From NCBI RefSeq assembly GCF_002160865.1, contig NZ_NFLJ01000019.1, positions 1 to 54,696 on the forward strand: a DNA stretch of 54,696 bases. Direction: 5' to 3'. Source of the DNA: Massiliimicrobium timonense (lineage in GTDB: Bacteria > Bacillota_I > Bacilli_A > Erysipelotrichales > Coprobacillaceae). Numbering within the stretch: position 1 is the stretch's first letter; each line of letters begins with the position of its first letter. The translations under genes and the position numbers were made by a program. Shown piece after piece: positions 335 to 53,693 of the stretch. Below the pieces are notes generated by a model that searched no databases, had not been told where the DNA came from, and saw nothing but the letters and a program-made list of their open reading frames with translations.

Positions 335-1306
335 ATGTCTGTTTTAAAGAAAGATCATGTTATGAGGGATTTTTTTGGACATCCGGGTCATTTTGCTGAT
401 TTTTTAAATGTTTTATTTTTTGATGGACAAAAGGTCGTTGATGCTTCATACCTGTTTCCATACCAAAATGATAAAACTTATGCAGATTATCATTTTTCAA
501 TCGAAAAAAGAAATGATATCACAATGAAATGGGATACAGGATTCTGGCAGATTCTTATTAACATGGAAGCACAAAGTCAATCAGATTATACAATGACTTC
601 GAGAATTTTATTGTATGATGCTCTTAATTATGCTTTGCAGGATAAGCATCAAAAAGGTTGTCGTTTCATGCTTGTTATAAGTTTAGTGTTGTATCATGGT
701 GAAGGAAAATGGAAAGCTTTGACATCATTAATGGATCGTATTGAAGCACCAGAATATCTTAAAAGACTTGGTAATGATTGGAAAATAAGAGTTGTTGATC
801 TTAAAGAATTGGATTATCGTCTTTTTAGAAATCAGGAGAACAGGCAGCTGATCAAGGGATTACAATTGATCTGGAAAAAGAATGTAGCAGGGCTTCAAAA
901 CATGGTTGTTACAAAGGGAGTTGCTAAGGTATTGGCAACTTTAACGGGACAGGAAGAATTGGTTGAAATTATTGAAAAGGAAGGTGAAGAAAAAGTGGAA
1001 ATGTATTCATTGTGGAAGGATGCCATTCATATAGGAATGGAAGATGGTAGAAAAAAAGGGAAAGAAGAAGGAATTAAAACAGGACGTGAAGCAGGAATTA
1101 AAGAAGGAATGAAAGAAGGAATTAAAACAGGGCGTAGAGAAGGACAACAGATGTTGATTCTTAATTTACTGCAAAATGTACTTGGACAGTTGACACCAGA
1201 AATCAAAAAACGTATTCAACAATGTGATGAACATATGTTGCAGGTTATAGGTATGCATATTCATCAAATACATAATGAACAAGATGTTTTAAAACTTTTG
1301 ATGTGA
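335..1306 (+). CDS. Rpn family nuclease / transposase_31-like protein
   Basis: This 323-residue protein matches the Rpn (PF04754, PD-(D/E)XK nuclease) layout. The N-terminal part has the conserved MRDFFGHPGHFADFLN region and the active-site strand with D (KWDTGFW) and ExQ (LINMEAQSQ) near residues 69-84. The helical middle is followed by a charged linker of GxxEG/GxxxG repeats (about 235-270) and a compact helical tail. Rpn proteins are DNA endonucleases reported to promote RecA-independent recombination and, in E. coli, to act in toxic antiphage defence. Inside the gene, GTG at 995 lies 10 bases after GGAAGG (979-984) and could start an internal product comprising only the tail. The next gene is a second copy of exactly that tail. 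Confidence 0.85.
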   Translation: MSVLKKDHVMRDFFGHPGHFADFLNVLFFDGQKVVDASYLFPYQNDKTYADYHFSIEKRNDITMKWDTGFWQILINMEAQSQSDYTMTSRILLYDALNYALQDKHQKGCRFMLVISLVLYHGEGKWKALTSLMDRIEAPEYLKRLGNDWKIRVVDLKELDYRLFRNQENRQLIKGLQLIWKKNVAGLQNMVVTKGVAKVLATLTGQEELVEIIEKEGEEKVEMYSLWKDAIHIGMEDGRKKGKEEGIKTGREAGIKEGMKEGIKTGRREGQQMLILNLLQNVLGQLTPEIKKRIQQCDEHMLQVIGMHIHQIHNEQDVLKLLM

Positions 1307-1420
1307 GTTGTTGCATAGTGATTTTATCTGATATGGATAAAGGAAATGATGTTTAAGTATTCTTTACTTGCAAGAAGATGGGGTATTTTGGATAATGAGT
1401 TGTTAAAAGGAAGATGAAAA

Positions 1421-1714
1421 ATGGAAATGTATTCATTATGGAAAGATGCCATTCATATAGGAATGGAAGATGGTAGAAAAAAGGGGAAAGAAGAAGGAAT
1501 TAAAACAGGACGTAGAGAAGGACAACAGATGTTGATTCTTCATTTACTGCAAAATGTACTTGGACAGTTGACACCGGAAATCAAAAAACGTATTCAACAA
1601 TGTGATGAACATATGTTACAGGTTATAGGTATGCATATTCATCAAATACATAATGAACAAGATGTCTTTAAGTTGCTTATAACATGCTATAAAAACAATA
1701 AAGAAAGGGTTTAA
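1421..1714 (+). CDS. Free-standing duplicate of the Rpn C-terminal tail
   Basis: The 97-residue product repeats the last ~100 residues of the upstream Rpn protein almost perfectly, beginning with the same MEMYSLWKDAIHIGMEDG. It lacks one 16-residue block of the GxxEG repeat linker and ends in a new tail (TCYKNNKERV). It has no nuclease domain. AAGGAAG upstream of ATG 1421 is a plausible ribosome binding site, so it may be expressed. E. coli rpn genes are reported to contain internal starts producing C-terminal small proteins that block the full-length toxin, and this could be a separate-gene version of such a protein. The alternative is simply a decayed tandem duplication. The 114 bp between the two genes shows nothing recognisable. 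Confidence 0.6.
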   Translation: MEMYSLWKDAIHIGMEDGRKKGKEEGIKTGRREGQQMLILHLLQNVLGQLTPEIKKRIQQCDEHMLQVIGMHIHQIHNEQDVFKLLITCYKNNKERV

Positions 1715-41938: not shown

Positions 41939-42016
41939 GGCGGACGTGGCGAAGTGGTTAACGCACCGGATTGTGGCTCCGGCATTTCGTGGGTTCGATT
42001 CCCATCGTCCGCCCCA
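41939..42016 (+). tRNA. tRNA-His (GTG)
   Basis: The extra 5' G(-1) at 41939 pairs with C73 as in all tRNA-His. The acceptor is GCGGACG/CGTCCGC, anticodon GTG is at 41973-41975, and CCA is encoded. Its last 17 bases recur at 53210, the other end of the mobile element. Confidence 0.95.
42000..42016 (+). other. attL core candidate in tRNA-His 3' end
   Basis: TCCCATCGTCCGCCCCA forms the 3' T-arm, acceptor strand and CCA of tRNA-His. The identical 17 bases occur at 53210 without the rest of the tRNA, so similarity begins inside the tRNA-His gene. This is what recombination into a tRNA 3' end leaves. Confidence 0.7.
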
Positions 42017-42022
42017 GAGTAT

Positions 42023-42096
42023 GCGGGTGTAGTTCAATGGTAGAACTTCAGCCTTCCAAGCTGACTACGTGGGTTCGATTCCCATCACCCGCTCCA
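42023..42096 (+). tRNA. tRNA-Gly (TCC), copy 2
   Basis: The 74-nt sequence is identical to the tRNA-Gly at 26877. It follows tRNA-His by 6 bp. It lies inside the 260-bp repeat that recurs at the right end, so it may be element-borne or the host's original gene. Confidence 0.96.
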
Positions 42097-42106
42097 TTGA
42101 AACAAT

Positions 42107-42134
42107 AAAGTCCTTATTTTAAGGGCTTTTTTTT
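42107..42134 (+). terminator. Terminator after tRNA-Gly copy 2
   Basis: AAAGTCCTT/AAGGGCTTT (42107-42115, 42121-42129, one G-U pair) is followed by Ts. It is repeated at 53317-53344. Confidence 0.85.
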
Positions 42135-42250
42135 GTTTTCAAACACAAAATTCAAATAAATATTTTTTGTTTGATGAGTCTATTTGGTTCAAAATTTATT
42201 TCTATACTCTCTTTAAAAGGATGGATTTTTTATATAGAATCTCTTTTTTT

Positions 42251-42271
42251 GCACCAAATTTGCACCAAATT
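42251..42271 (+). promoter_or_regulatory. Candidate integrase arm-type sites, left
   Basis: CACCAAA occurs at 42252-42258 and 42263-42269, exactly 11 bp apart in the same orientation. A pair with the same spacing lies near the right end (53091-53108) and a degenerate pair in the second unit (53463, 53474). Helically phased direct repeats at both ends suit arm-type integrase sites; binding is inferred. Confidence 0.5.
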
Positions 42272-42274
42272 CTT

Positions 42275-42547
42275 TTATTTTACCAATCTTCCTAGTTCTA
42301 AACCTAGTTTTATACCATCTTCAAAAGCATTAAGTATAACAAAGTTATCTACATCTATCCAAGAATTAATGACTTCATCAATTAATTTTTCAGAATTTTG
42401 AATTTGTTTTTCTTTCATGATTTGTAATACCTGATTAATTGTATCTTCATTGTGCTTTAATGCTGTTTGATATTCCTTTGTATAAGGCATTTCTTTTTCG
42501 CTAGGTATAAATCTTCCAAAATATAAATCTTTTATAAAATCATTCAT
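42275..42547 (-). CDS. Small conserved protein (DUF6809-like)
   Basis: The 90-residue acidic helical protein starts MNDFIKDLYFGRFIPSEKE and ends DGIKLGLELGRLVK. It is like the small phage/element-associated DUF6809 proteins (start with F.KDLYYG, end with a G..LG motif). Function unknown. GGGAGG lies 8 nt before its ATG. It is the last gene of the leftward element operon, next to the left end. Confidence 0.7.
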   Translation of the reverse strand: MNDFIKDLYFGRFIPSEKEMPYTKEYQTALKHNEDTINQVLQIMKEKQIQNSEKLIDEVINSWIDVDNFVILNAFEDGIKLGLELGRLVK

Positions 42548-42578
42548 TATATATTTCCTCCCATCATGACATCAACCT

Positions 42579-43910
42579 CTATTTTATAGAGGTTGATTGA
42601 TTTTCAATAACCCGATCAAACTCCTGAATAAGAGCCTGTTCAGTTTCTGTAAATAAATGAGAGTATGTGTTCAGCATTGTTTCGACACTGTGTCCAAAGT
42701 GATAAGCCATAGCCACTAAAGATTGTTGTGTTTTTGCATTATTGACCATTAAAGATACGCAACTATGTCTTAAATCATGTATACGTAAGTAGGGTAATGC
42801 AATTTCTACAACATAATTCAATCCATACGGATTGTCAATAATGTCTTTGATTTTCACATGTATCTTCCATTCTTTATATCCACCTTTTTTCTCCTCATTG
42901 TAATAAACTTTTCCATCTAACATCACGGTTGCACCAATTTTTATTTTTCCACTTAAACAAGAGGCATACGTATATCCATAACCTTTAGAACCGATTCTTA
43001 AATGCTTTCTAAATTGATTATGAACTGTATTTCTTGCAAGGGGATAGATAAAACCAAAAACATAAGCCTCTTGATTAAAATTGATTTTTTGACTTTCTAT
43101 TTGATACCATTTCTCTAATATATTGATAAGAATTTGAGGTATACAAATTAGTCGTGTTGAATTTTTTGTCTTAGGTGGTGTTAAGACTTCTTCTTTGACA
43201 GAATGAATATTGGATAGAGTCTGTTGAATATTAATAGTTCCCTTTTTCAAATCAATATGTTTCCACTGTAATGATAAAGCTTCACCACGTCGCATACCTG
43301 TATAATAAAGTAATGAGAATAACGTATAATATAGGGGTTCTTTCACATTATAGATGAACTCTTGGAATTCTGAAGGCTTCCATACATTATAATTGGTTTG
43401 ATTGAGTTCATCAGGTTTTTTAATTCTTCGTACTTTTCTTAAAGGATTTGTTTGAATATATTCGTTTTCTAAAGCATATTTAAAGACAAGATTAAGTTTG
43501 TAATAGATTTTATCAATGGTAGCGATACTTAGATTTTTCTTTTCTAATGAAAGAATAATCTGTCTTAAATCTTGTGAAGTGATACTTACAATTGGTTTAT
43601 CAAATAAATTTTTAGCATGTTGTAATGCCTGTTTGGTTGTTTTGATAGAAGTTTCTTTCATATAATACTGACAATCTAAAATAACTTCATCAATAACTTC
43701 TTTGAGTGTTTTTTGATTGTTTTCTTCTTGAGTCTTTAACAATTTTCTTTCTATATCATATTTAACTTTTGATTCTTTTTCTAACGCTTCTTTTTTTGTT
43801 TCAAAACCACTTTTTCCTGTATAAACTTGTTTTTGTCGCCATTTATTATCATTATCTTTGTATTTAAATCTTATCGACCATAAACCATATTTGTTTTTAT
43901 ATACTGCCAT
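42579..43910 (-). CDS. int: Tyrosine recombinase (integrase) with insertion in catalytic domain
   Basis: The 443-residue integrase has an N-terminal arm-binding domain (VYKNKYGLWSIRFKYKD), a core-binding SAM-like domain (about 65-165) and a catalytic domain. Catalytic residues are Arg207 in TGMRRGEALSL, His378 and Arg381 in IHDLRHSCVSLM, His407 in YHFGHSVETM and nucleophile Tyr416 in TYSHL. Between about residues 310 and 371 lies a ~60-residue insertion (starts near KGYGYTYASC, ends near YVVEIALPY) where relatives pass directly to the HxxR motif. GGAG precedes ATG 43910, which overlaps none of mobV; the ATG at 43928 would overlap it by 17 bp. Confidence 0.92.
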   Translation of the reverse strand: MAVYKNKYGLWSIRFKYKDNDNKWRQKQVYTGKSGFETKKEALEKESKVKYDIERKLLKTQEENNQKTLKEVIDEVILDCQYYMKETSIKTTKQALQHAKNLFDKPIVSITSQDLRQIILSLEKKNLSIATIDKIYYKLNLVFKYALENEYIQTNPLRKVRRIKKPDELNQTNYNVWKPSEFQEFIYNVKEPLYYTLFSLLYYTGMRRGEALSLQWKHIDLKKGTINIQQTLSNIHSVKEEVLTPPKTKNSTRLICIPQILINILEKWYQIESQKINFNQEAYVFGFIYPLARNTVHNQFRKHLRIGSKGYGYTYASCLSGKIKIGATVMLDGKVYYNEEKKGGYKEWKIHVKIKDIIDNPYGLNYVVEIALPYLRIHDLRHSCVSLMVNNAKTQQSLVAMAYHFGHSVETMLNTYSHLFTETEQALIQEFDRVIENQSTSIK

Positions 43911-43911
43911 T

Positions 43912-45159
43912 TTAAAGCTCCATATCACGATATTGTCGATCGTTTTTTGACTGTATTGTTATTTCTAATGATTCATGTGGATGTTTTTCTTCAAAATAAT
44001 GTATTTTTTCCTTTAAAGAAGATATGACTCTTGTTATGGCATTTTGAGCTTTATGATACAATTCTTTTAAATCATAGGCATTGATAGTATTAGGTTCTTT
44101 TTGAAACATTTGCTTGAAACGTTTAAATATTTTATCCAATCCTAACAAAGAAATAAATTGTTTATATAGATTTACATTTTCTTTAAGACAATCGTTTTTC
44201 TTTTCTAGTTCGTCATAATTTTCTCTCAATCTTTGAAATTGATTTTCTTCATAAGATATTCTCTGTTCGAGATGGTCAATTGATGAATATAAATGATGAA
44301 TAACTTCTTCCTTTTGCTTAAGTTGTTTCGCTAAAGGCATGGATCTATACATGTCTAGTTCTTCTTTTTGAATCGTGACAAGATGTGTTAGACCTATTAC
44401 TTCTTTTTGGTATTGATTTAGGCTATATTTAAGCCCATCAATAATCTGATTGCATTTTTTAAGTGTTCTTGTCTTTTCCAACAGACCGGATGGATTGTAA
44501 TCAATATGATTAGCTTCATCAATAATGTTTTGAGTTGCTTCTTTATGCTTATAAATGTTTTCTAAGCTCTTTTTAAAACTTAAATCTTCTTGTTGTTTCA
44601 ACTCTTTTATTGTGCGATTTCCGTTGATTGTAGCGTTGTTTTGAATGGAAGGCATATAACCTAAGGCTTGTTCAAGAAACGCCCCTAAATCTGGATGAAA
44701 TCGCTTGAGTTCTTTCTTTGTGAGAATATCCTTGCATTTCAATCTTTCAATCCCATCTATTTCAACAACTGGTATAAATGAAAAGTGTATATGTGGTGTT
44801 GCTTCATCATTGTGTACCCAAGCACTGACAACATTCTTTTGATTATATTTTTGGGTAAGAAATTGGAATGTCGATTCAAAAAATTTCTCTTGATCTTCTT
44901 GAGGTACATCTTTAGGAAGTGTCACAATCCAATCCACCATATAAATAATATCATCTCTCTTGATGTGTTTGACTTCACTTATTCTTTTCTTTAAAAACTG
45001 TTCAGGTTTCATTGGTTGAATATCACATGCCAGATTGTAATTAAGATGAGTTCTACTTTTATCTATATCCTGATTAGACAGTTCACAGCCCTCTCGTCTT
45101 TCACAATGGATAACCAATCCAATGACACCTTGCTTTTTTATTTTTTGGGCATGAGCCAT
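43912..45159 (-). CDS. MobV family relaxase (plasmid recombination enzyme)
   Basis: The 415-residue relaxase nicks oriT and pilots the strand during mobilization. The MobV motifs are RTHLNYNL (about 36-43) and the metal-binding motif HNDEATPHIHFSFIP (His116, Glu119, His123, His125). A long coiled-coil C-terminal half (about 195-345) follows. It starts 22 bp from a hairpin-rich region that looks like its oriT and lies directly upstream of int. Confidence 0.92.
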   Translation of the reverse strand: MAHAQKIKKQGVIGLVIHCERREGCELSNQDIDKSRTHLNYNLACDIQPMKPEQFLKKRISEVKHIKRDDIIYMVDWIVTLPKDVPQEDQEKFFESTFQFLTQKYNQKNVVSAWVHNDEATPHIHFSFIPVVEIDGIERLKCKDILTKKELKRFHPDLGAFLEQALGYMPSIQNNATINGNRTIKELKQQEDLSFKKSLENIYKHKEATQNIIDEANHIDYNPSGLLEKTRTLKKCNQIIDGLKYSLNQYQKEVIGLTHLVTIQKEELDMYRSMPLAKQLKQKEEVIHHLYSSIDHLEQRISYEENQFQRLRENYDELEKKNDCLKENVNLYKQFISLLGLDKIFKRFKQMFQKEPNTINAYDLKELYHKAQNAITRVISSLKEKIHYFEEKHPHESLEITIQSKNDRQYRDMEL

Positions 45160-45180
45160 ATGATTTCATCCTTTCCAAAA

Positions 45181-45251
45181 GCCCCCGGCAGGGCAAGTTT
45201 CCAAAAGGCTTTAGCATTTTGGTATAACTTGCTAGACCAATGTTTTGGTCT
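45181..45251. other. Candidate oriT of the MobV relaxase
   Basis: GCAAGTTTCCAAAA (45193-45206) pairs with TTTTGGTATAACTTGC (45217-45232) with a small bulge. A second hairpin AGACCAA/TTGGTCT (45234-45240, 45245-45251) abuts it, and GCCCCCGGCAGGGC lies at 45181. Strong adjacent hairpins immediately upstream of a mob gene are the usual oriT layout. The nick site is not known. Confidence 0.6.
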
Positions 45252-45314
45252 TTCTTTTTAAAGATTGCCGATAGGCTTCATATTTTATTTTCAATGTTCT
45301 TGTTTTGTGACAGA

Positions 45315-45357
45315 ATGACACTTTATTGTACGCACTATAAAGTGTCATAAGTGTCAT
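45315..45357. repeat. Inverted and direct AAGTGTCAT repeats beside repA-like gene
   Basis: ATGACACTTTAT (45315-45326) and ATAAAGTGTCAT (45337-45348) are a perfect 12-bp inverted repeat, and AAGTGTCAT recurs directly at 45349-45357 across the end of the repA-like gene. No T run follows, so this looks more like a binding or replication site (iteron-like) than a terminator. Confidence 0.5.
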
Positions 45358-46313
45358 TTTTCAGGGGAAAATTCTAATTTTATTAATCTTTCATGTCCAT
45401 TTCTTTCTTTTGAAAAATAGATATGATTTTCATCAAGTATTGTCTTATTTTTTACAAGAAATCTATAAAGACCTTTAGGATTAATAGTTAAATTCATTTT
45501 AGCAGTGAGTGTTTGACAGTTATCTTTCATGCAATGAGATTCATTGATAGCTAACGCTTTAATTATCAACAATACGTTTGGATCAATAAACTCATCACCA
45601 TCATCGCTATCGTTAAAAACCCAATTAATATTATGATCATCTTTTTTGATAGGAATTTTTTCTTTGCGTGAACGTAAAATAAAATTTAATGTACCTGTCG
45701 TACTGAATTCATTTTCCGTTTCAATGATGATAGTTCCTGTGGTTGCTGAAGTTAGCGATTTTGAACCTAAAACACTATCTTGCAATTTGGCTTTTCCCTT
45801 TTTTGTGTGGTGAGTTAAAACACAACATAAATTCTTGTTAACAATAAAATCTCTAAATTCTTTAATCATTGCATAATTCTCACTAAAATTATCAACATCA
45901 CTAAATTCGTAAAGATTAGCTAAGCAATCTATAATAATCAAACTCACTTCATTGATTCTTGAAAAACCCATGATAAATTCTTTGATGTCATATAAACTAC
46001 TGGAATCATCAAAATTATAGAGGACATTGTCATTTTCTTGAAATTGTTGTGCTTTAATCCTTGATTTTGCTTCAAAATCATAATTATCATTATCAAAATA
46101 TAAAACAAGTCCTTTCTTGGTTTTCTTGCTTAAAAATGGTTCACCATTGGCAACAGCATTAGCTAAGCTCGTTGTTAGTAGAGATTTCCCAATTTTACTC
46201 GTACCGGCAAATATATACAATCCTACTTTAAGCAATCCTTCCAGAATATCGTCTTGTTTATTTTCAAAATGAGTATTTAATAATTCGCTTTGTGAGTAAA
46301 GTTTATGATTCAT
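45354..46313 (-). CDS. RepA-like AAA/RecA-fold ATPase
   Basis: The 319-residue protein has Walker A GTSKIGKSLLTT (about 37-48), a Walker B strand VSLIIIDCL (about 121-129) and the DnaB/RepA-like sensor region LTHHTKKGKAKLQDSVLGS. The C-terminal winged-helix-like part (from about 245) may bind DNA. It resembles hexameric RSF1010 RepA-type helicases found on mobilizable elements, suggesting replication of the excised circle. ATP use is certain; the helicase role is inferred. Confidence 0.82.
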   Translation of the reverse strand: MNHKLYSQSELLNTHFENKQDDILEGLLKVGLYIFAGTSKIGKSLLTTSLANAVANGEPFLSKKTKKGLVLYFDNDNYDFEAKSRIKAQQFQENDNVLYNFDDSSSLYDIKEFIMGFSRINEVSLIIIDCLANLYEFSDVDNFSENYAMIKEFRDFIVNKNLCCVLTHHTKKGKAKLQDSVLGSKSLTSATTGTIIIETENEFSTTGTLNFILRSRKEKIPIKKDDHNINWVFNDSDDGDEFIDPNVLLIIKALAINESHCMKDNCQTLTAKMNLTINPKGLYRFLVKNKTILDENHIYFSKERNGHERLIKLEFSPEK

Positions 46314-46345
46314 ATTTTGACTTTATTCCTTTCAAATTTGTTTGA

Positions 46346-46405
46346 AAAGAAACATATTCTTTGATATACTTTAAGAGAAAAGAGCATATAAAAATATGTT
46401 TCTTT
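46346..46405 (-). promoter_or_regulatory. Long inverted repeat between HTH gene and repA
   Basis: AAAGAAACATATT (46346-46358) and AATATGTTTCTTT (46393-46405) form a perfect 13-bp stem around a 34-nt loop in the leader of the repA gene. The loop includes TTGATATACTTT, a word that also ends the right-end palindrome at 53147. It could attenuate repA expression. Confidence 0.45.
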
Positions 46406-46425
46406 ACTTGGAATCATTCATATTC

Positions 46426-46656
46426 TTACTTGGCGGTTGGAATGAATGATTCTTTTCTTTTCTCAATAGGATGAGTTACATCAAAGTATTGTTCACATGC
46501 TTCAATAGGAAGTAATCCAGCTTTAGGAAGTCTATTTTTATCAATGCCAAACAATTCAATGATGCGTTTTGCATGAACTTTAGCAATCTGTTGATAACTA
46601 CACCCAACGGCATCTGCGAGTTCCTGATACGTACAAAATTTTTGTCTAATTTCCAT
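46426..46656 (-). CDS. Small HTH DNA-binding protein (possible excisionase)
   Basis: The 76-residue protein has a helix-turn-helix in TYQELADAVGCSYQQIAKVHAK (about 9-28) and a basic C-terminus. It is first in the leftward operon to repA, mobV and int, divergent from the XRE repressor. Size and place suit an excisionase or replication regulator; neither can be told from the sequence. Confidence 0.75.
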   Translation of the reverse strand: MEIRQKFCTYQELADAVGCSYQQIAKVHAKRIIELFGIDKNRLPKAGLLPIEACEQYFDVTHPIEKRKESFIPTAK

Positions 46657-46740
46657 ATGTTTTCACCTGCCTTTCGTTGTTGGTACATAAAATATATATT
46701 TTTCATAACATCAAATACATATAATACTTACCACGACTTT

Positions 46741-46811
46741 ATTATACCATTATATATGATTATTGCAATATATATTTATATAAATTTTAGTATATTATGA
46801 ATTTCGCAATA
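46741..46811 (-). promoter_or_regulatory. Leftward element promoter with candidate repressor sites
   Basis: On the minus strand TTGCAA (46763-46768) and TATAAT (plus-strand ATTATA, 46741-46746), 16 bp apart, form a promoter for the HTH-repA-mob-int operon. TTGCAATA (46763-46770) and TCGCAATA (46804-46811) recur between the divergent genes and one overlaps the -35. They are candidate XRE binding sites. The rightward xre gene has TATAAT at 46831-46836 without a clear -35. Confidence 0.5.
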
Positions 46812-46855
46812 CTTATTTATAAAAATAATGTATAATGTTTATGAGGTGAACATTC

Positions 46856-47509
46856 ATGTCAATAACAACATATATACATAAATTAAGAGAAGAAAAGGAT
46901 ATATCTTTTCGTCAGTTATCCATAGATTCAAAAATCAGTTATGGTAATATTATGGATATTAAAAATGGGCGAATAGCTTATCCAACTGATTCTATTCTAA
47001 GCAAATTATCAAAATATCTTAATCAACCAAAAGAAGATATTCTTTTTGATATTTTGAAAGATGATGTTGATGAAGATTATTCTTTGACATCACTTCGTTA
47101 CTTATGTTATTTAAACACACATAATTATACGATTGCGATTAAACCAAATGTTCCAAATCATTTGAGAACGGGAGTTATGATTTTTGATGGATATGCATAT
47201 AAAAAACGTTCTGGAAATACTTTTACAATTGTAGATTCATGGTCACGTATAAAAAAAGAGCATTGGTCAATGCTCAGGGTTCATTTTCGTACAAAATTGG
47301 ATAGAGATTCATGGACTGAAGTATTTATTAATGAAGATATGTACATAACTAATGTTTTGTATTTTGAAATATTCAGAATAGAAACCAGTGGATTTGAAAA
47401 CGTTAAAGAAGTTGTCATTACATATGATGAAAAAGATCACGATGTTAAATATGTTGAAAAGTTTGTTCCTAAAAAAATGACCTATAAAATAAAATTTGTA
47501 TCTTTATAA
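46856..47509 (+). CDS. XRE family regulator of the element
   Basis: The 217-residue protein has an N-terminal Cro/CI-type helix-turn-helix (LREEKDISFRQLSIDSKISY, about 9-28; NGRIAYPTDSILSKLSKYL). A C-terminal region of about 140 residues is beta-rich with no peptidase or metallo motif seen. It is divergent from the mobilization operon and probably represses it. A truncated, decayed copy lies at 53500. GAGGTGA precedes the ATG. Confidence 0.85.
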   Translation: MSITTYIHKLREEKDISFRQLSIDSKISYGNIMDIKNGRIAYPTDSILSKLSKYLNQPKEDILFDILKDDVDEDYSLTSLRYLCYLNTHNYTIAIKPNVPNHLRTGVMIFDGYAYKKRSGNTFTIVDSWSRIKKEHWSMLRVHFRTKLDRDSWTEVFINEDMYITNVLYFEIFRIETSGFENVKEVVITYDEKDHDVKYVEKFVPKKMTYKIKFVSL

Positions 47510-47515
47510 ATATTG

Positions 47516-47554
47516 AAAGCCAATTTAAGGTGATGCTTAAATTGGCTTTTTATC
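47516..47554 (+). terminator. Terminator after xre gene
   Basis: A perfect 14-bp stem AAAGCCAATTTAAG (47516-47529) and its complement (47536-47549) is followed by Ts. Confidence 0.9.
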
Positions 47555-47592
47555 ATATATCAATATATATCAATTTAAAATGAATTTTTTAA

Positions 47593-48183
47593 TTAAAGAT
47601 TAAAGTTTACAGTAAAAGATTTATTTCCTGCAACTCCTGTGACACTGACTATTTTTCCGTATGCTGTAACAGAGTATGTACTATTAGAATTTTTAAATTT
47701 TCCAGTATGTGAATCCATATCAAAGAATATAGATGTTGTGATTCTGTTGACCGTTACTGTAGGTTTATAAGAAGTATCAAATTTACTTCCACTATATTTA
47801 TAACGCAATGTCATGCTGTTATGTCCTGAGAAAAATAAGACAGTCTTACTACCAAGTGAAGATTTTGTGTTTGGGCTAAGCGTGGCATTAATTGTTTCAT
47901 CTTTGCTATCATTTGCTAAGTTTATTAATTCTTCCTTGAATGTTGAAAGATTTGTATTTTGAATATCAAGTAAATATTCGTCGTAATTTTTATTAAGCAG
48001 TTGGTCTAAATGAGAATCATAGAAATCAGATTGAGTCATTAAATAGAAAGATGTATCATACATCTTATTGACTTCCTCAATGATTTCTTTATGTTCTCTT
48101 AATTCATCATCATAAGCTCTTACGTTACTAAATGGAAAAATTATTAATAACAGGCTGATCATCAATAGTATTTTCTTTTTCAT
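47593..48183 (-). CDS. Secreted protein of unknown function
   Basis: The 196-residue protein has a clear signal peptide (KKK start, hydrophobic 5-18, cleavage after VRA at about 23). A helical N-terminal half and a beta-rich C-terminal half with NSTYSVTAYGKIVSVTG follow. No cysteines or enzymatic motifs are visible. ATG 48183 is 9 nt after AAAGGAGG; the 5' end overlaps the regulator gene by 56 bp, so it is translated from the same mRNA. Family not recognised. Confidence 0.75.
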   Translation of the reverse strand: MKKKILLMISLLLIIFPFSNVRAYDDELREHKEIIEEVNKMYDTSFYLMTQSDFYDSHLDQLLNKNYDEYLLDIQNTNLSTFKEELINLANDSKDETINATLSPNTKSSLGSKTVLFFSGHNSMTLRYKYSGSKFDTSYKPTVTVNRITTSIFFDMDSHTGKFKNSNSTYSVTAYGKIVSVTGVAGNKSFTVNFNL

Positions 48184-48481
48184 TTTCAGTTTCCTCCTTT
48201 TCAATCACCGCTTTTAGCATTTTAACGTATTTTATGAATTCATTTCTTCCATAATCTGTTAAATGATATGTTGTTAATGGTTTATCTTTGTAAATTCTTT
48301 TATGTTTTAAAATGAATTGGCTTTGAATAAGCTTATTTAGATGTGTTGCCATATTACCATCACTACAATTACATATCTCTTTTAACTGTCGATATGAAAG
48401 ATCGCTTTTATATAAACTTGCAATAATTTGTAAACGTATATTTGATTCAAATGCTTTAGATTGTTCGTATATTTTGTTCAT
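48128..48481 (-). CDS. Winged-helix transcriptional regulator (HTH_34-like)
   Basis: The 117-residue protein has a winged helix: SNIRLQIIASLYKSDLSYRQ (about 12-31), recognition helix SDGNMATHLNKLIQSQ, wing KDKPLTTYHLTDYG. This is the small ArsR/MarR-like domain often encoded next to a membrane protein. ATG 48481 follows GGAGGTGA. It lies between the membrane protein gene (26-bp overlap) and the secreted protein gene (56-bp overlap). It probably regulates this operon through the inverted repeat at 49174. Confidence 0.85.
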   Translation of the reverse strand: MNKIYEQSKAFESNIRLQIIASLYKSDLSYRQLKEICNCSDGNMATHLNKLIQSQFILKHKRIYKDKPLTTYHLTDYGRNEFIKYVKMLKAVIEKEETENEKENTIDDQPVINNFSI

Positions 48482-49148
48482 CTTTCTCACCTCCTATACA
48501 TAGCACAACAAATAAGTTTGATAAAATGCAAGTTATAAGATATGTTTTAACAATGTCTATTAATGAGAATAATGTCTTTGAGAGTAAAGAAACATCAGTT
48601 AGTGTAGGAAAATATATCGAGTATAGAAAGCTGAATATTAAATAAGCAATATTTATTCCTGCAATCCATAGAATATATTTCTGCCTTATATAGTAATGAA
48701 TATAAAATAGCATGATGATGTTAATAATTATAGACATGGGAAAAGTTAAATAAAAGGTTAAAAGGAAATCAGCGTTTATATAAGTCATTGTACAACTCAT
48801 AATTTGTTCTAAAGAAATAAGTACAGGAAATATGAACCAAGTTTTTAAAAATCTTCTTTCTTGTAATGAGGTTACTTTGTTGATTGATTTCCATAATAGA
48901 ATTAAAAGAATACAGTTAAATCCAATTTGACATAAATTTTTTATTGGGTAATAAAAAGGAAAATTGTATAGTTGATAATATATATTAATATTATCAATTG
49001 CAAAACAAAATATTGAGTATAGAGATAATCCTACTATCCAAAAAGTGAGGATTTTTTGAATATAATGACATGATGTTTTTTTATTTAAGAGATAATCTAC
49101 ATCGTCTTGTGTCTGTGATATTAATGATAATTTTTCAGATGCTTTCAT
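48456..49148 (-). CDS. Multi-pass membrane protein, partner of wHTH regulator
   Basis: The 230-residue protein has a cytoplasmic N-terminus (about 1-30) and about six hydrophobic helices. There are no catalytic motifs or transporter signatures. Such wHTH/membrane protein pairs are widespread in Firmicutes but poorly understood; the membrane protein could signal to or restrain the regulator. First gene of the leftward cargo operon; AAGGAG precedes the ATG. Confidence 0.75.
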   Translation of the reverse strand: MKASEKLSLISQTQDDVDYLLNKKTSCHYIQKILTFWIVGLSLYSIFCFAIDNINIYYQLYNFPFYYPIKNLCQIGFNCILLILLWKSINKVTSLQERRFLKTWFIFPVLISLEQIMSCTMTYINADFLLTFYLTFPMSIIINIIMLFYIHYYIRQKYILWIAGINIAYLIFSFLYSIYFPTLTDVSLLSKTLFSLIDIVKTYLITCILSNLFVVLCIGGEKDEQNIRTI

Positions 49149-49173
49149 AAAAATAATTCTCCTTTATTTATTT

Positions 49174-49244
49174 AAAATCTTAAGGCATTTTTAAGATTTT
49201 TTTATGAAACATTCATTATAATAATTATAGCATAAATTTGTAAA
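49174..49244 (-). promoter_or_regulatory. Promoter and candidate operator of wHTH cargo operon
   Basis: On the minus strand TTTACA (plus TGTAAA, 49239-49244) and TATAAT (plus ATTATA, 49215-49220) are 18 bp apart. Just downstream, AAAATCTTAA (49174-49183) and TTAAGATTTT (49191-49200) form a perfect 10-bp inverted repeat at about +7 to +33. It could be the operator of the operon's own wHTH protein or an mRNA hairpin before the ribosome binding site. Confidence 0.6.
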
Positions 49245-49711
49245 AAAAAGAACCTATTAAAAAAATATAATTATTTATCAAAAGAACTTTTAAAATGAAA
49301 GTATATATGATAAACTAAATGTAGGAAGTAAAATATTTTATCATTAACTGTTTTCTTAATAAAAATTTAATGGTTTATACGTATACATAATAATAAATAT
49401 TAATACATATTATTTTAGATTATCATGATAGATAACCTATTTATGGTTAATTTTCATTAATAGTTATATTCAAAAAAAGAGGGTGATTCCAATGTGCTTT
49501 TTAAAGAGTATTATATATTTGTAAGATATTTACATATCTGTATTCTCATTCATTTACACATATAATATTAATTAATTGTCCTTGAATATAATATGATTTC
49601 TACTACTATAAAAATGTTTTCTTTTTATGGATATATTAAATCTTTGACATTTATGTTGTGAAATAATTTATATATTTGTAATGAAATTAACAATGAAAGA
49701 AGGGAAATACG
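49245..49711. other. Gene-free region between divergent cargo operons
   Basis: About 470 bp of very AT-rich DNA with no plausible gene. Near its right end TTGACA (49644-49649), with an AT-rich -10 near 49667-49673, is a possible promoter for the amidase gene, whose site GAAGGGAA lies at 49698. I see no repeat or RNA signature in the rest. Confidence 0.5.
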
Positions 49712-50740
49712 ATGAAGAAAATAATATTGATTATTTCGTTGATTTTGTCATTTGGAATTGGATTTGTAAATGATGCTTATGCAATGGAATCATCACCTTA
49801 CAAAGAAATTGAATCGTTTATTGAATTGAAAAAGGGACCAGTATATGTGATTAATGGTCAAGAAAATGAAACTTTTTGGGAATTTAAAGATGAAGAAGAA
49901 GCATTTGATGCTATAAAAGAACATTCTTCAAATTTCATTGAAGATTTGAAACAGAATTATGGGTTAGATGAACTTTCTGTATCAACATGGAAAGATTATA
50001 GAGATGCTTTAGAACAATATTATTCAGTCAATGCAATTTCAGATGTTGAATATAATCAATCAGTTTTGAGAATTTTCTTTGAAGTTTGTGACAACATGGA
50101 AAGAAATCAACAAATTAAAGAATTATATGGCCATAATGATTTTGGAGAAGAAATGGCTATGCTTTTACCATATTTCACACCATTTTCTCAAGATTATCAA
50201 GAAAATCATAAATCAGTACAGACTAGAGCAGGTTTAAATGTTACTGCGATGGTACAATACGCTATAAAGTGGTGGTATTACTATAATCCTGGATATGTAA
50301 AACAATCTTCAGATTGTACTAATTTTGCTTCTCAGATTTTAGATGCAGGAGGTAAATCTCCTGATAATTATAAAAAATCTCCTGACAGTGTTTCATCTTG
50401 GTGGTATGTAATTGGAAAGAATCCTAGTTGGTCTGTTTCGTGGGTAAGAGCAGACTATTTTGTAAGACATTTTGGTGTTGCTTATTCTTATACAGACTTT
50501 AATAGTTTCACTCAAAAAGCAAATAAAGGAAGTTTTATTGCGTATGATTCAGAAGCAGATGGAAAATGGAATCACGTTGCATTTGTGACAGAAGTTGGAT
50601 CAACAGGAACATATGGTGGAAAAAGATATAGAAATTTAAGGATTGCTCAACATACTACTAATTATCATGAATGGGTCTCTAGTGATAAGAATGGCTGGGA
50701 AAATGTTGGAGGCATTAAAGCTGTATTAAACATTTCATGA
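49712..50740 (+). CDS. Secreted Amidase_6-domain protein
   Basis: The 342-residue protein has a signal peptide (about 1-24, cleavage after AYA), an N-terminal helical region (about 28-170) and a C-terminal Amidase_6-like domain. The domain starts MVQYAIKWWYYYNPGY (about 180) with catalytic-type Cys202 in SSDCTNFASQIL and His288 in KWNHVAFVTEV, and aromatic ligands SWWYV. This papain/NlpC-like fold is expected to cut peptide or amide bonds in cell wall material, but the substrate is unknown. It heads a rightward cluster of secreted and anchored proteins and could be an effector or a surface remodelling enzyme. Confidence 0.88.
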   Translation: MKKIILIISLILSFGIGFVNDAYAMESSPYKEIESFIELKKGPVYVINGQENETFWEFKDEEEAFDAIKEHSSNFIEDLKQNYGLDELSVSTWKDYRDALEQYYSVNAISDVEYNQSVLRIFFEVCDNMERNQQIKELYGHNDFGEEMAMLLPYFTPFSQDYQENHKSVQTRAGLNVTAMVQYAIKWWYYYNPGYVKQSSDCTNFASQILDAGGKSPDNYKKSPDSVSSWWYVIGKNPSWSVSWVRADYFVRHFGVAYSYTDFNSFTQKANKGSFIAYDSEADGKWNHVAFVTEVGSTGTYGGKRYRNLRIAQHTTNYHEWVSSDKNGWENVGGIKAVLNIS

Positions 50741-50851: not shown

Positions 50852-51436
50852 ATGAAAAAAAGTAAAAAAGTCACAATCATATCAATCGTTGCTATTATAA
50901 TGATTATGGGGATATTACAAATCTATCATTATTCTATGAATTTATCTGTCGAATTGCCTAAAGAAATGGATTCTGCTGTTAAAGAAGGACTTGAAACAAT
51001 GATTAATCCTAATAAGTACTTTCCAGGTAAATATAAAAATGTAGATTTTATCTTTTCTGTTTCAGCTTATCATACTTTTGACTATACTGTTAATGGTGCA
51101 TCTATTAAAGTATATGGGTTATTTGATTTGATGAAATTAGATGAAGAATGTATTAATGACTATAGAGAAAATGATAATTTTACTTGTAGGTTTGGATCAG
51201 GAGGATATTTTGTTGCCTATTTAAAAAAAGATGAACAAGGAAAAATAGTCCCAGAAAGGATTTGGACGCAATATTCAATAAACGATTCTACACTAGATAT
51301 TTTGAAGAAATTTCCCATAAAGACATGGCTTTTTATACTTATAGGTAATTCTCATAAATACGATGAAATACATGTCAAAGAAATGGAATGGCAATTACAT
51401 GATTATGTATATAGTGGCACTGAGAAAACCGAATAA
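50852..51436 (+). CDS. Membrane-anchored extracellular protein, paralog 1
   Basis: The 194-residue protein has an uncleaved N-terminal anchor (about 6-26) after KKSKK, then an extracellular domain. Its core pattern is FIFSVSAYHTFDY, KVYGLFDL, SGGYFVAYLKKDEQGKI, LDILKKFP. A similar order (FAT...Y...VYxxxxY...SG...V...K...Y.L.E...P.DG...I...FP) occurs in the domain that follows BlaR1-type M56 peptidases and in small stand-alone proteins, so a sensor-type domain is possible. It is the first of three tandem paralogs behind the amidase. Confidence 0.75.
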   Translation: MKKSKKVTIISIVAIIMIMGILQIYHYSMNLSVELPKEMDSAVKEGLETMINPNKYFPGKYKNVDFIFSVSAYHTFDYTVNGASIKVYGLFDLMKLDEECINDYRENDNFTCRFGSGGYFVAYLKKDEQGKIVPERIWTQYSINDSTLDILKKFPIKTWLFILIGNSHKYDEIHVKEMEWQLHDYVYSGTEKTE

Positions 51437-51507
51437 CTATAATTCATATTTCAATAGAAAACAATGATTTTATTTTAAGATGATTCAGACAATAAAGGAA
51501 TGGTAAG

Positions 51508-52112
51508 ATGAAAAAAGTAAGAAAGTCACAATCATATCAATTGTTGTTATTGCATTTGTGATGGGGCTATTACAAATCTATCATTATTGTTTGAATTTAT
51601 CAGTGGAATTGCCTCAAGAAGTTGACCAGGCTGTGACAGAATGTCTTGAAACAATGATAGAACCGGATGAATATTTAGCAACATTTATGCCTTTGCATTA
51701 TGATTTTGCTACATCAGCATATCATGCTTTTGGATATACAGAAGATGATACATATATCAAAGTTTATGGATATTGTGTATTATTCGAATGTAATAATGAA
51801 ACTCTCAAAGAAAACAAAGAGAGAAAAGAAAAACATATTGATATGTATTCTGCTGATTTTTGGGAAGCTAATTATTTTATTGCATACTTAAAAAAAGATG
51901 GACAAAGCAAGGTCACACCAGAGAAAATATGGATTGCACAATACCCACAAACCCTAACAGATATACTAAAGAAAATGCCTATAAGAACATGGCTTTATAT
52001 ATTTCTAGATGATCCTAAAGGATATATGGAAAAGCTATCTACAAAATGTGCAAAACAAATGTATGAATATATTGATAGTCATGATATTCCAGAAAGCAAT
52101 GAAGAAAAGTGA
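51508..52112 (+). pseudogene. Paralog 2, frameshifted in an A tract at its start
   Basis: ATG 51508 with an AAAGGA site opens MKKVRKSQSYQ and stops after 17 codons. The other frame, from about 51523, reads TIISIVVIAFVMGLLQIYHY, the same anchor as paralog 1, and continues to 52112. Six As follow the ATG here, seven in paralog 1. Adding one A restores a full ~201-residue protein close to paralog 1. No good start exists for the main frame (GTG 51558 has no site and would lose half the anchor). The domain body is intact, so the damage is recent, switchable or a sequencing error. Confidence 0.75.
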
Positions 52113-52138
52113 GATGATAGTATTTGGAGGACAAAATA

Positions 52139-52642
52139 ATGAGCAGAAAGAAAAAGATAGTTTTGATTATTTTAGGAATTATAGCCTCTTTAGGAGTATT
52201 ATTGTTTTATTGGGATCATCAGGTTGTAACACCAACACAAGAACTTGATGAAAGTTTAAGGTATGAATTGGCGCATATGGACGATGAATATATTGAATAT
52301 GATTTTGCAACAGTATCATATAGATTGTTTAAAATTAATGAATCAAAAGATAAAGCCATTGTCTATGGGATGTTTTATATAGAACAATATAAAAAAGACA
52401 GTGAATTTTCAGAAAGTGGTTATTTTGATTATATGAAAGTGACATTAAAGAAAGAAAATGAAAAATATATATTAGATGAGGTTTGGGTTCCAGAAGATGG
52501 TGACCAGTATCAAATATCTTTATTAAAGAATTTTCCTATTAGTACATGGAGTCGTATTTTGTTGACAGGAGATAGATATAGACTAGAATTGATAGAGGAA
52601 AATGAACAACAATACAACAAATATATCACAAAAAATGACTAA
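52139..52642 (+). CDS. Membrane-anchored extracellular protein, paralog 3
   Basis: The 167-residue protein has a KKK-preceded anchor (about 6-24) and the same extracellular pattern as paralogs 1 and 2: YDFATVSYRLFKI, IVYGMFYIEQY, SGYFDYMKVTLKKENEKYIL, VWVPEDGDQYQISLLKNFP. It is the member closest to the BlaR1-tail-like pattern. GGAGG lies 8 nt before ATG 52139; the ATG at 52124 lies upstream of that site. It is intact, unlike paralog 2. Confidence 0.78.
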   Translation: MSRKKKIVLIILGIIASLGVLLFYWDHQVVTPTQELDESLRYELAHMDDEYIEYDFATVSYRLFKINESKDKAIVYGMFYIEQYKKDSEFSESGYFDYMKVTLKKENEKYILDEVWVPEDGDQYQISLLKNFPISTWSRILLTGDRYRLELIEENEQQYNKYITKND

Positions 52643-52684: not shown

Positions 52685-53050
52685 ATGAAAATTAAGAAAT
52701 TATTGAGCTTATTTTTTGTTTTCTTGTCAATATTTTGTTTTATAATGAAACCAAAAGATGTATATGCAGCTGATATTCAACAAAGAGTTTATTCTACGGA
52801 TATGGTAGTTCCTACTTATGGAACTATATCAATGGCATTTATATATGATTATAATGCAGATACAAAGAAGAAAACATTTGTAAAATGGACTACCTATAAA
52901 GTTAAACCTGTAAATGGAAGTACTTGTTGGTATATTTCTCGTGATGTTAAACAGAATGGTAATGGGTTGATAATGACTGTTACAGCACAAGGATATAACT
53001 ATAATACTAGAGTAACAAGCCCAGTATATAAGTTTGTTAGAAATGTATGA
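52685..53050 (+). CDS. Small secreted protein
   Basis: The 121-residue protein has a signal peptide (about 1-28, cleavage after VYA) and a ~92-residue beta-rich mature part with DIQQRVYSTDMVVPTYGT, a single Cys, and LIMTVTAQGYNYNTRVTS. Function unknown. The end pattern recalls that of the secreted protein at 47593 (VTAYGK...), but this similarity is weak. AAAGGAG precedes the ATG. It is last in the rightward cargo cluster. Confidence 0.75.
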   Translation: MKIKKLLSLFFVFLSIFCFIMKPKDVYAADIQQRVYSTDMVVPTYGTISMAFIYDYNADTKKKTFVKWTTYKVKPVNGSTCWYISRDVKQNGNGLIMTVTAQGYNYNTRVTSPVYKFVRNV

Positions 53051-53209: not shown

Positions 53210-53469
53210 TCCCATCGTCCGCCCCAGAGTATGCGGGTGTAGTTCAATGGTAGAACTTCAGCCTTCCAAGCTGACTACGTGGGTTCGATTCCCATCACCC
53301 GCTCCATTGAAACGCTAAAGTCCTTATTTTAAGGGCTTTTTTTGTGTTTTCAAACACAAAATTCAAATAAATATTTTTTGTTTGATGAGTCTATTTGGTT
53401 TAAAATTTGTTTCTATACTCTCTTTAAAAGTATATATTTTTTATATAGAATTTCTTTTTTTGCACCAAA
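53210..53469 (+). repeat. 260-bp direct repeat, right copy
   Basis: This copy of 42000-42258 starts with the 17-base tRNA-His 3' end (53210-53226), then has tRNA-Gly, its terminator and the AT-rich left-end sequence up to GCACCAAA. A degenerate second CACCA follows 11 bp later. It is at once the right junction of unit 1 and the left end of unit 2. Confidence 0.92.
53233..53306 (+). tRNA. tRNA-Gly (TCC), copy 3
   Basis: The 74-nt sequence is identical to copies 1 and 2. The tRNA-His promoter and gene body are replaced upstream by element DNA. A TTGACA (53201-53206) has no matching -10, so whether this copy is transcribed is unclear. Confidence 0.93.
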
Positions 53470-53499
53470 AAACCACCAGATTATTTGATCAATCTTACC

Positions 53500-53693
53500 A
53501 GTTATCAAAATATCTTAATCAAAAAAATATTCTTTTTGATATTTTGAAAGATGATATTAATGAAGATTATTTGACACCACTTTGTTACTTATGTTATTTA
53601 AATGCACATAATTATGCATGAGCAATGAAATCTAATGTATCTAATCATTTAAAAACGTTAAAGAAGTTGCCATTACATACGACGAAAAAGATC
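53500..53693 (+). pseudogene. Truncated, decayed copy of the XRE regulator
   Basis: Frames here read LSKYLNQ, NILFDILKDDINEDY, LCYLCYLNAHNYA, stop, then AMKSNVSNHLK joined to NVKEVAITYDEKD. These match the middle and a late segment of the XRE protein at 46856 (about residues 50-108 and 180-195), with the N-terminal helix-turn-helix and ~75 inner residues deleted and a stop inside. It belongs to the degraded second element. Confidence 0.85.

What the first reader, a model, noticed from the sequence alone, without database searches (positions are those of the whole stretch)
47593..49244. Membrane protein, wHTH regulator and secreted protein in one overlapping cargo operon
Three genes overlapping by 26 and 56 bp pair a membrane protein and regulator with a secreted product, with a perfect inverted repeat right after the promoter. 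It could be a self-controlled signalling or release system: the membrane protein senses, the wHTH acts on 49174-49200, and the secreted protein is the output.
Basis: partly seen in the sequence, partly recalled or inferred. Interest (0 to 1): 0.55.

Follow-up and report, generated by a model that had tools for sequence, protein, structure and literature searches.

The report
Sensor-repressor-secreted protein operon in gut bacteria
In a small group of gut bacteria, three overlapping genes make a membrane protein, a DNA-binding regulator and a secreted protein of unknown family; they look like a self-regulated switch for releasing the secreted protein, probably built like a known Bacillus toxin-and-immunity circuit but from unrelated parts.

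Summary
With ATG starts the three minus-strand genes overlap by 26 and 56 bp behind a promoter-like sequence, and pairwise dN/dS points to purifying selection. Five genomes of one family carry the same operon. In 11 genomes of the order the membrane gene is followed by the regulator gene (11 of 11). The secreted gene follows intact in 5, truncated in 1, is absent in 4, and cannot be judged in 1 (contig end). The secreted protein matched no Pfam, NCBIfam, PHROGs or PDB family.

The flagged inverted repeat is probably not the operator: such arms occur in 17% of shuffles, and it is kept only in the closest relative. A better candidate is two AAAAGTWCTTTT-like boxes 34-35 bp apart, the second over the -35 position of a conserved TGnTATAAT promoter, in the four genomes of the genus that carry the genes. 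Such boxes cluster around the operon.

"Cargo of the mobile element" is not supported: one relative keeps the gene pair beside the tRNA without the element.

Most likely mechanism, inferred: the wHTH represses its own operon and perhaps neighbouring secreted-protein genes, and the membrane protein relieves repression on an outside signal, possibly the secreted product. This resembles SdpC-SdpI-SdpR of Bacillus subtilis, but family membership fails.

The parts
48456..49148 (-). membrane protein gene (230 aa), predicted multi-helix sensor (six helices in several orthologues)
   Evidence: no Pfam or NCBIfam family at E<=1. dN/dS 0.12 against G002.
48128..48481 (-). HTH_34 winged-helix regulator gene (117 aa), overlaps the membrane gene by 26 bp
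   Evidence: Pfam PF13601 E 2.6e-17; only PDB sequence relative at E<=0.001 is 1ub9, PH1061; dN/dS 0.11-0.15 (window against G002, G003, G001).
47593..48183 (-). secreted protein gene (196 aa): signal peptide by its look, variable region, conserved C-terminal domain (about residues 100-196); overlaps the wHTH gene by 56 bp
   Evidence: no family above cut-off in Pfam or NCBIfam and none at E<=0.01 in PHROGs; no convincing PDB sequence relative (best E 0.038).
49224..49232 (-). extended -10 element TGCTATAAT, conserved in G002 (TGCTATACT), G003 and G001
49215..49244 (-). alternative promoter match TTTACA-18-TATAAT, its -10 not conserved in G002 and G003
   Evidence: 11 of 12 matches.
49280..49291 (-). 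box 1, AAAAGTTCTTTT, candidate operator
   Evidence: exact in G002 and G001; inverted (AAAAGAACTTTT) at the matching place in G003.
49246..49257 (-). box 2, ATAGGTTCTTTT (2 mismatches to box 1), 34 bp from box 1, at the -35 position of the conserved promoter
   Evidence: spacing 34, 34, 34 and 35 bp in G000, G002, G003 and G001.
   Evidence: chance P 0.17; of the relatives, present in G002 only. Probably not the operator.
47516..47549 (-). terminator-like stem-loop downstream of the secreted gene
   Evidence: 1 found, 0.2 expected in shuffles.
49712..50740 (+). divergent secreted Amidase_6 protein, possible member of the same regulon
   Evidence: Pfam PF12671 E 3.4e-20; shares the 563-bp intergenic region that holds the boxes. 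Regulation is inferred only.

Best explanation
The operon is an autoregulated sensor-repressor module whose output is secreted. Shown by sequence: three co-directional overlapping genes, their conservation and selection, the hydrophobic pattern of the membrane protein, and the conserved paired boxes at the promoter. Inferred: the HTH_34 protein binds the AAAAGTWCTTTT boxes, one of which covers the -35 position, and represses its own operon and perhaps some neighbouring secreted-protein genes. The membrane protein perceives an extracellular cue and relieves repression, probably by holding the regulator at the membrane. Overlap of the reading frames couples production of the secreted protein to that of its sensor and repressor. 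Most speculative: the secreted protein's conserved C-terminal domain is itself the cue or a weapon against neighbours, and the membrane protein also protects the producer, as SdpC, SdpI and SdpR do in Bacillus subtilis.
For: Three-gene operon in G000, G001, G003, G033 and G036, overlapping in all. Membrane gene followed by the wHTH gene in 11 of 11 true hits among 309 genomes of the order (gaps of 3 and 74 bp in G027 and G195, overlaps in the others); a twelfth hit lies in an unrelated 521-aa open frame and was dropped. Paired boxes 34-35 bp apart, the second starting 27-30 bp upstream of the conserved TATAAT (TATACT in G002), in the four genomes of the genus that carry the genes. AAAGTWC or its complement lies within 200 bp upstream in 11 of 14 starts examined, against about 1.2 expected from shuffles (sum of the per-start chances). 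AAAAGTWCTTTT: 10 of 53 places in five genomes (14.8 Mb) fall in the 19-kb stretches around the operon (G001 3 of 14, G002 1 of 4, G003 4 of 11, G033 1 of 15, G036 1 of 9), where about 0.3 are expected (places counted by hand, palindromes once). In G001 two of these lie upstream of short or broken secreted-protein-like ORFs, one followed by a C39-like peptidase frame. Six segments in 4 of 7 membrane proteins scanned, with basic residues in the N-terminal and the second inner loop. Two-gene versions in G020, G021 and G041 lie beside ABC ATPases (see the rival). Sdp mechanism: passages read in PMC1626106 and PMC11995493.
Against: The box was found by looking at these same loci, so its statistics are partly circular; the four genomes of the genus share ancestry, G020 and G021 are near-identical, and 7 of the 10 clustered places come from G001 and G003. 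Exact 10-base boxes are in 5 of 11 upstream regions and in none of the five two-gene loci. Of ten starts at other loci of the wHTH subfamily (nine loci, mostly lone genes, one of them L084 also in the set of 14), one has even the 7-base core. G027 and G024 have no box; in G036 it lies two genes upstream of the membrane gene, with a terminator-like inverted repeat between. Genome-wide the box is not in excess: reversed-pattern controls are mostly more frequent (rows 16/23, 4/34, 13/29, 16/29, 13/15 for G001, G002, G003, G033, G036; 9/7 in the own genome). In G001 the membrane gene is split into two frames. In G002 the secreted gene is truncated while the pair stays under purifying selection, so the pair has a use without it. 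No toxin or ligand domain was recognised. Structure prediction was poor and gave no fold match.
Confidence: 0.5

Rival explanations
1. Envelope-stress response: the membrane protein senses foreign antimicrobial peptides or wall damage, and the secreted protein is a protective or cell-surface protein, not a weapon or a ligand.
For: Two-gene versions sit beside ABC ATPases. Best NCBIfam hit is the lantibiotic-protection type in G041 (TIGR03740, 177.7 bits, cut-off 309.75) and the bacteriocin-export type in G020 (TIGR03608, 93.7, cut-off 254.85); in G021 that type is only fourth, behind an ABC-F model. The pair persists without the secreted gene in four genomes.
Against: All the ABC ATPases score below the curated cut-offs. 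In the five three-gene loci the secreted gene always overlaps the regulator gene, so its link to the sensor looks specific.
Confidence: 0.25
2. Ordinary secreted surface or colonisation protein under a local regulator that answers to a host or nutrient cue; no feedback and no conflict role.
For: Strong matches to the secreted protein were found only in one family (6 of 315 genomes of the order; no genome but the window's own in a 392-genome phylum sample). Neighbouring loci carry many other small secreted-looking proteins.
Against: Does not explain why sensor, repressor and product share one overlapping operon in five genomes.
Confidence: 0.2
3. The inverted repeat 49174-49200 is the operator, as first proposed.
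For: Perfect 10-bp arms just downstream of the promoter; also present in G002.
Against: Expected by chance in 17% of shuffles; absent at this position from G001, G003, G033 and G036.
Confidence: 0.05

Closest known systems
SdpC-SdpI-SdpR signalling and immunity system of Bacillus subtilis
   Same: A secreted protein, a polytopic membrane protein (six helices in SdpI) and a small autorepressor; genes of sensor and repressor in one operon. The mechanism is from passages of PMC1626106 and PMC11995493. That SdpR is a small winged-helix (ArsR-type) protein and that the precursor sizes are alike is recalled.
   Different: Here the secreted gene is in the same operon as sensor and repressor, whereas sdpABC is a separate convergent operon. 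No SdpI, SdpC or SdpR family was matched above cut-off. No gene recognised as SdpA or SdpB was noted nearby, but none was searched for.
PadR plus DUF6120 membrane-protein pairs
   Same: wHTH (PadR) and membrane protein (DUF6120) overlapping, followed by a secreted-looking protein gene, near the tRNA-Gly of G003 (L036:4519-5652).
   Different: Different regulator family and different membrane-protein family; the secreted proteins are not detectably related.
HTH_34 winged-helix proteins such as PH1061 (PDB 1ub9)
   Same: Regulator matches by profile, E 5.5e-9.
   Different: Only the regulator is compared; the membrane partner and the secreted output are not part of that family's definition.

Membership tests
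SdpI/SdpR/SdpC system | membrane protein belongs to the SdpI family | tested here: not met
   No Pfam or NCBIfam family at E<=1 for the window protein. That Pfam holds an SdpI model is recalled.
SdpI/SdpR/SdpC system | repressor belongs to the SdpR subfamily | tested here: not met
   NF033789 (SdpR autorepressor) scores 20 bits, curated cut-off 100.
SdpI/SdpR/SdpC system | secreted protein is SdpC-like | tested here: not met
   No SdpC family among the Pfam or NCBIfam hits at E<=1. Whether both libraries hold an SdpC model was not checked.
SdpI/SdpR/SdpC system | six-helix membrane sensor next to a small winged-helix regulator | tested here: inconclusive
   wHTH adjacent in 11 of 11. Six segments in 4 of 7 proteins scanned; 4 in the window protein, 5 in G036 and in the unrelated G024 protein (simple hydropathy).
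SdpI/SdpR/SdpC system | ligand-induced sequestration of the repressor; immunity | not testable with these tools
   Needs experiments.
HTH_34 regulators (PF13601) | profile match above gathering score over the whole domain | tested here: met
   63.2 bits, cut-off 27, profile 1-80 of 80; regulators of G195, G041, G027 and G021 too.
Lactococcin 972 family (considered for the C-terminal domain) | match to the family's profile | tested here: not met
   Not among Pfam or NCBIfam hits of the window protein at E<=1 nor Pfam hits of four orthologues at E<=0.1. The likeness was recalled, not computed.

The most novel reading that the evidence does not exclude
A class of plug-in cassettes in gut Erysipelotrichales: a winged-helix repressor, a multi-helix membrane sensor and a secreted effector in one gene row, in which sensor and effector are swapped while the order stays (the G024 version, where the secreted gene lies downstream without overlap, and the PadR-DUF6120 trio of G003). 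The secreted product would feed back on its own sensor, giving contact- or density-triggered release, with a local regulon of secreted enzymes under the same AAAAGTWCTTTT boxes.
Probability: 0.25. Interest if true: 0.7.

Novelty: new variant of a known kind. Interest (0 to 1): 0.5.

Why it matters
It offers a compact, testable extracellular-signal circuit in poorly studied gut Firmicutes, with a secreted protein family for which I found no description and a defined candidate operator. If it is self-inducing, it would show that Sdp-type toxin-sensor-repressor logic arose again from unrelated parts.

Tried and rejected
Secreted protein in viral contigs, plasmids and phages: no match; membrane protein in plasmids: none; wHTH in viral contigs: none. 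Secreted protein beyond the family: in 392 genomes drawn from the phylum only the window's own genome matched at E<=1e-5; the sample evidently did not hold the other known carriers. In the order (315 genomes), 22 genomes matched at E<=0.01: six matches are strong (E 2e-52 or better), G002 is the truncated remnant, and the other 15 genomes' matches (E 3e-4 to 0.009), with a second weak one in the own genome, were dropped as weak partial hits; only one of them (L020) was looked at. G023's copy lies at a contig end, so its upstream genes cannot be seen.

Structure of the secreted protein: folded alone, mean pLDDT 38.6 (whole) and 52.8 (C-terminal domain, strands only); no fold match better than E 0.89. 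The relatives' sequences were not handed to the folding tool, because its stated rule names other sources for them.

Relatedness of the secreted protein to other small secreted-looking proteins (L084, L010, window 52685-53050, L036:5221-5652): none supported. Relation of the membrane protein to that of L084: none supported; L084's membrane protein found no relative in a 392-genome phylum sample. Genome-wide regulon in the window's own genome: AAAAGTTCTTTT has 9 places against 7 for the reversed control, so no genome-wide signal. Defence-system models: only weak HTH hits. Literature: no paper found that joins PF13601 with 'membrane protein', none for the PadR / 'HTH-associated' combination, none for Massilimicrobiota with mobile and secreted, and one unrelated listing for a wHTH three-gene-operon search; these searches cover only the held library.

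Rows dropped: G001's split membrane gene was left out of alignment A2; G020's wHTH, cut by the contig end, was left out of A3; the G207 hit was dropped as unrelated.

Full report
What is there. On the minus strand, a 230-aa membrane protein gene (49148-48456), a 117-aa winged-helix gene (48481-48128) and a 196-aa secreted-protein gene (48183-47593) overlap by 26 and 56 bp, each with a ribosome-binding-site-like sequence. A promoter match TTTACA-18-TATAAT is at 49244-49215 and a terminator-like stem at 47549-47516; the promoter element conserved in relatives is TGCTATAAT at 49232-49224. The winged-helix protein is HTH_34. The other two match no family above cut-off.

Relatives. NCBI places Massilimicrobiota in Erysipelotrichaceae. 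The membrane protein was found in 9 of 43 genomes of the family; with a profile, in 12 of 309 genomes of the order, one hit being unrelated. In all 11 true cases (10 in the family, G195 in another family of the order) an HTH_34 gene follows. The secreted protein follows intact in G000, G001, G003, G033 and G036, is a truncated remnant in G002, is absent in G021, G027, G041 and G195, and cannot be judged in G020, where the contig ends. A strong profile match to the secreted protein occurs in 6 of 315 genomes of the order; in the sixth, G023, the contig ends just upstream. In a sample of 392 genomes of the phylum only the window's own genome matched. The wHTH subfamily is wider: 18 of 43 genomes of the family, with lone genes in several.

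Selection and anatomy. Pairwise dN/dS is 0.12-0.26 for the membrane gene (3 pairs), 0.10-0.22 for the wHTH gene (6 pairs) and 0.15-0.38 for the secreted gene (8 of 10 pairs; 2 saturated); dS is above 1 in most pairs, so these are rough. The C-terminal 96 columns of the secreted protein are 56-64 of 96 identical between any two of five sequences, against 18-39 of 73-75 in the middle region, as in a propeptide plus effector layout. From the first possible start the secreted gene overlaps the wHTH gene by 56 bp in G003 and G001 (56 bp from the ATG in G000), 4 bp in G033 and 20 bp in G036. Membrane proteins show six segments in 4 of 7 scanned and 4-5 in the rest.

Operator. The flagged inverted repeat is exact but expected in 17% of shuffles and, of the relatives, present only in G002. 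The four genomes of the genus with these genes (G004, the fifth, has no membrane gene) share instead two boxes, AAAAGTTCTTTT and a near or inverted copy, 34, 34, 34 and 35 bp apart. The second starts 27-30 bp upstream of the TATAAT (TATACT in G002) of a conserved TGnTATAAT, so it covers the -35 position. G003 joins two boxes in a 19-bp inverted repeat not reached in 200 shuffles. G033 has AAAAAGTACTTTTT 36 bp upstream of its membrane gene. G036 has a box 43 bp upstream of a same-strand gene that lies two genes before the membrane gene, with a terminator-like inverted repeat between, so its link to the operon is uncertain. Around the operon, 10 places of AAAAGTWCTTTT fall in five 19-kb stretches; the other 43 places are spread over the rest of 14.8 Mb. 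The motif was defined on these loci, so only the extra copies count as a test, and the genomes are related. Against a general role: other wHTH genes of the subfamily mostly lack it (1 of 10 starts), the two-gene loci have no exact 10-base box, and reversed-pattern controls show no genome-wide excess.

Surroundings. The operon lies between two tRNA-Gly(TCC) genes, inside imperfect repeats at 42000-42278 and 53210-53489, beside a Mob_Pre relaxase and an integrase. In G002 window positions 42121-48083 have no BLAST counterpart at the locus, yet the membrane-wHTH pair is there next to the tRNA-Gly. In G001 the order is as in the window but with about 3.4 kb between; in G003 it differs; in G033 and G036 no tRNA was found in the 19-kb stretches. 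The operon is therefore a resident of a tRNA-Gly hotspot in the genus, not shown to be cargo of this element.

Mechanism. Autorepression by the wHTH through the boxes, relief by the membrane protein, and a secreted output is the simplest reading (confidence 0.5). The nearest known logic is SdpC-SdpI-SdpR: SdpI is both immunity protein and receptor and sequesters the autorepressor SdpR at the membrane (passages of PMC1626106); six helices, with helices 1-3 binding SdpC and 4-6 binding SdpR (passages of PMC11995493). Family membership fails for all three proteins, so this is likeness in layout only.

Noticed in passing
window 53502-53693: Degenerate pieces of a second copy of the Cro-type HTH gene 46856-47509 beyond the second tRNA-Gly, suggesting an older, decayed insertion of a similar element.
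   Followed up: partly
window 50852-52642: Three neighbouring membrane-anchored-looking proteins, the first two clear tandem duplicates (D3, D5), with no family; similar DNA stands in G003.
   Followed up: no
L036:4519-5652: Overlapping PadR - DUF6120 membrane protein - secreted-looking protein trio near the tRNA-Gly of G003: same layout, other families.
   Followed up: partly
L084:750-2552: G024: membrane protein, HTH_34 and secreted-looking protein in a row, with membrane and secreted sequences not detectably related to the window's.
   Followed up: partly
L037:11557-13188: G033: second pair of a 96-aa membrane protein and HTH_34, with two box-like 10-mers between it and a divergent secreted C39-like peptidase.
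   Followed up: partly
L086 (own genome, contig C59) and L072: Lone HTH_34 paralogue of the same subfamily with no membrane partner seen in G000 and G004.
   Followed up: no
window 335-1714: Two ORFs sharing a C-terminal part, the second a short partial copy of the first.
   Followed up: no
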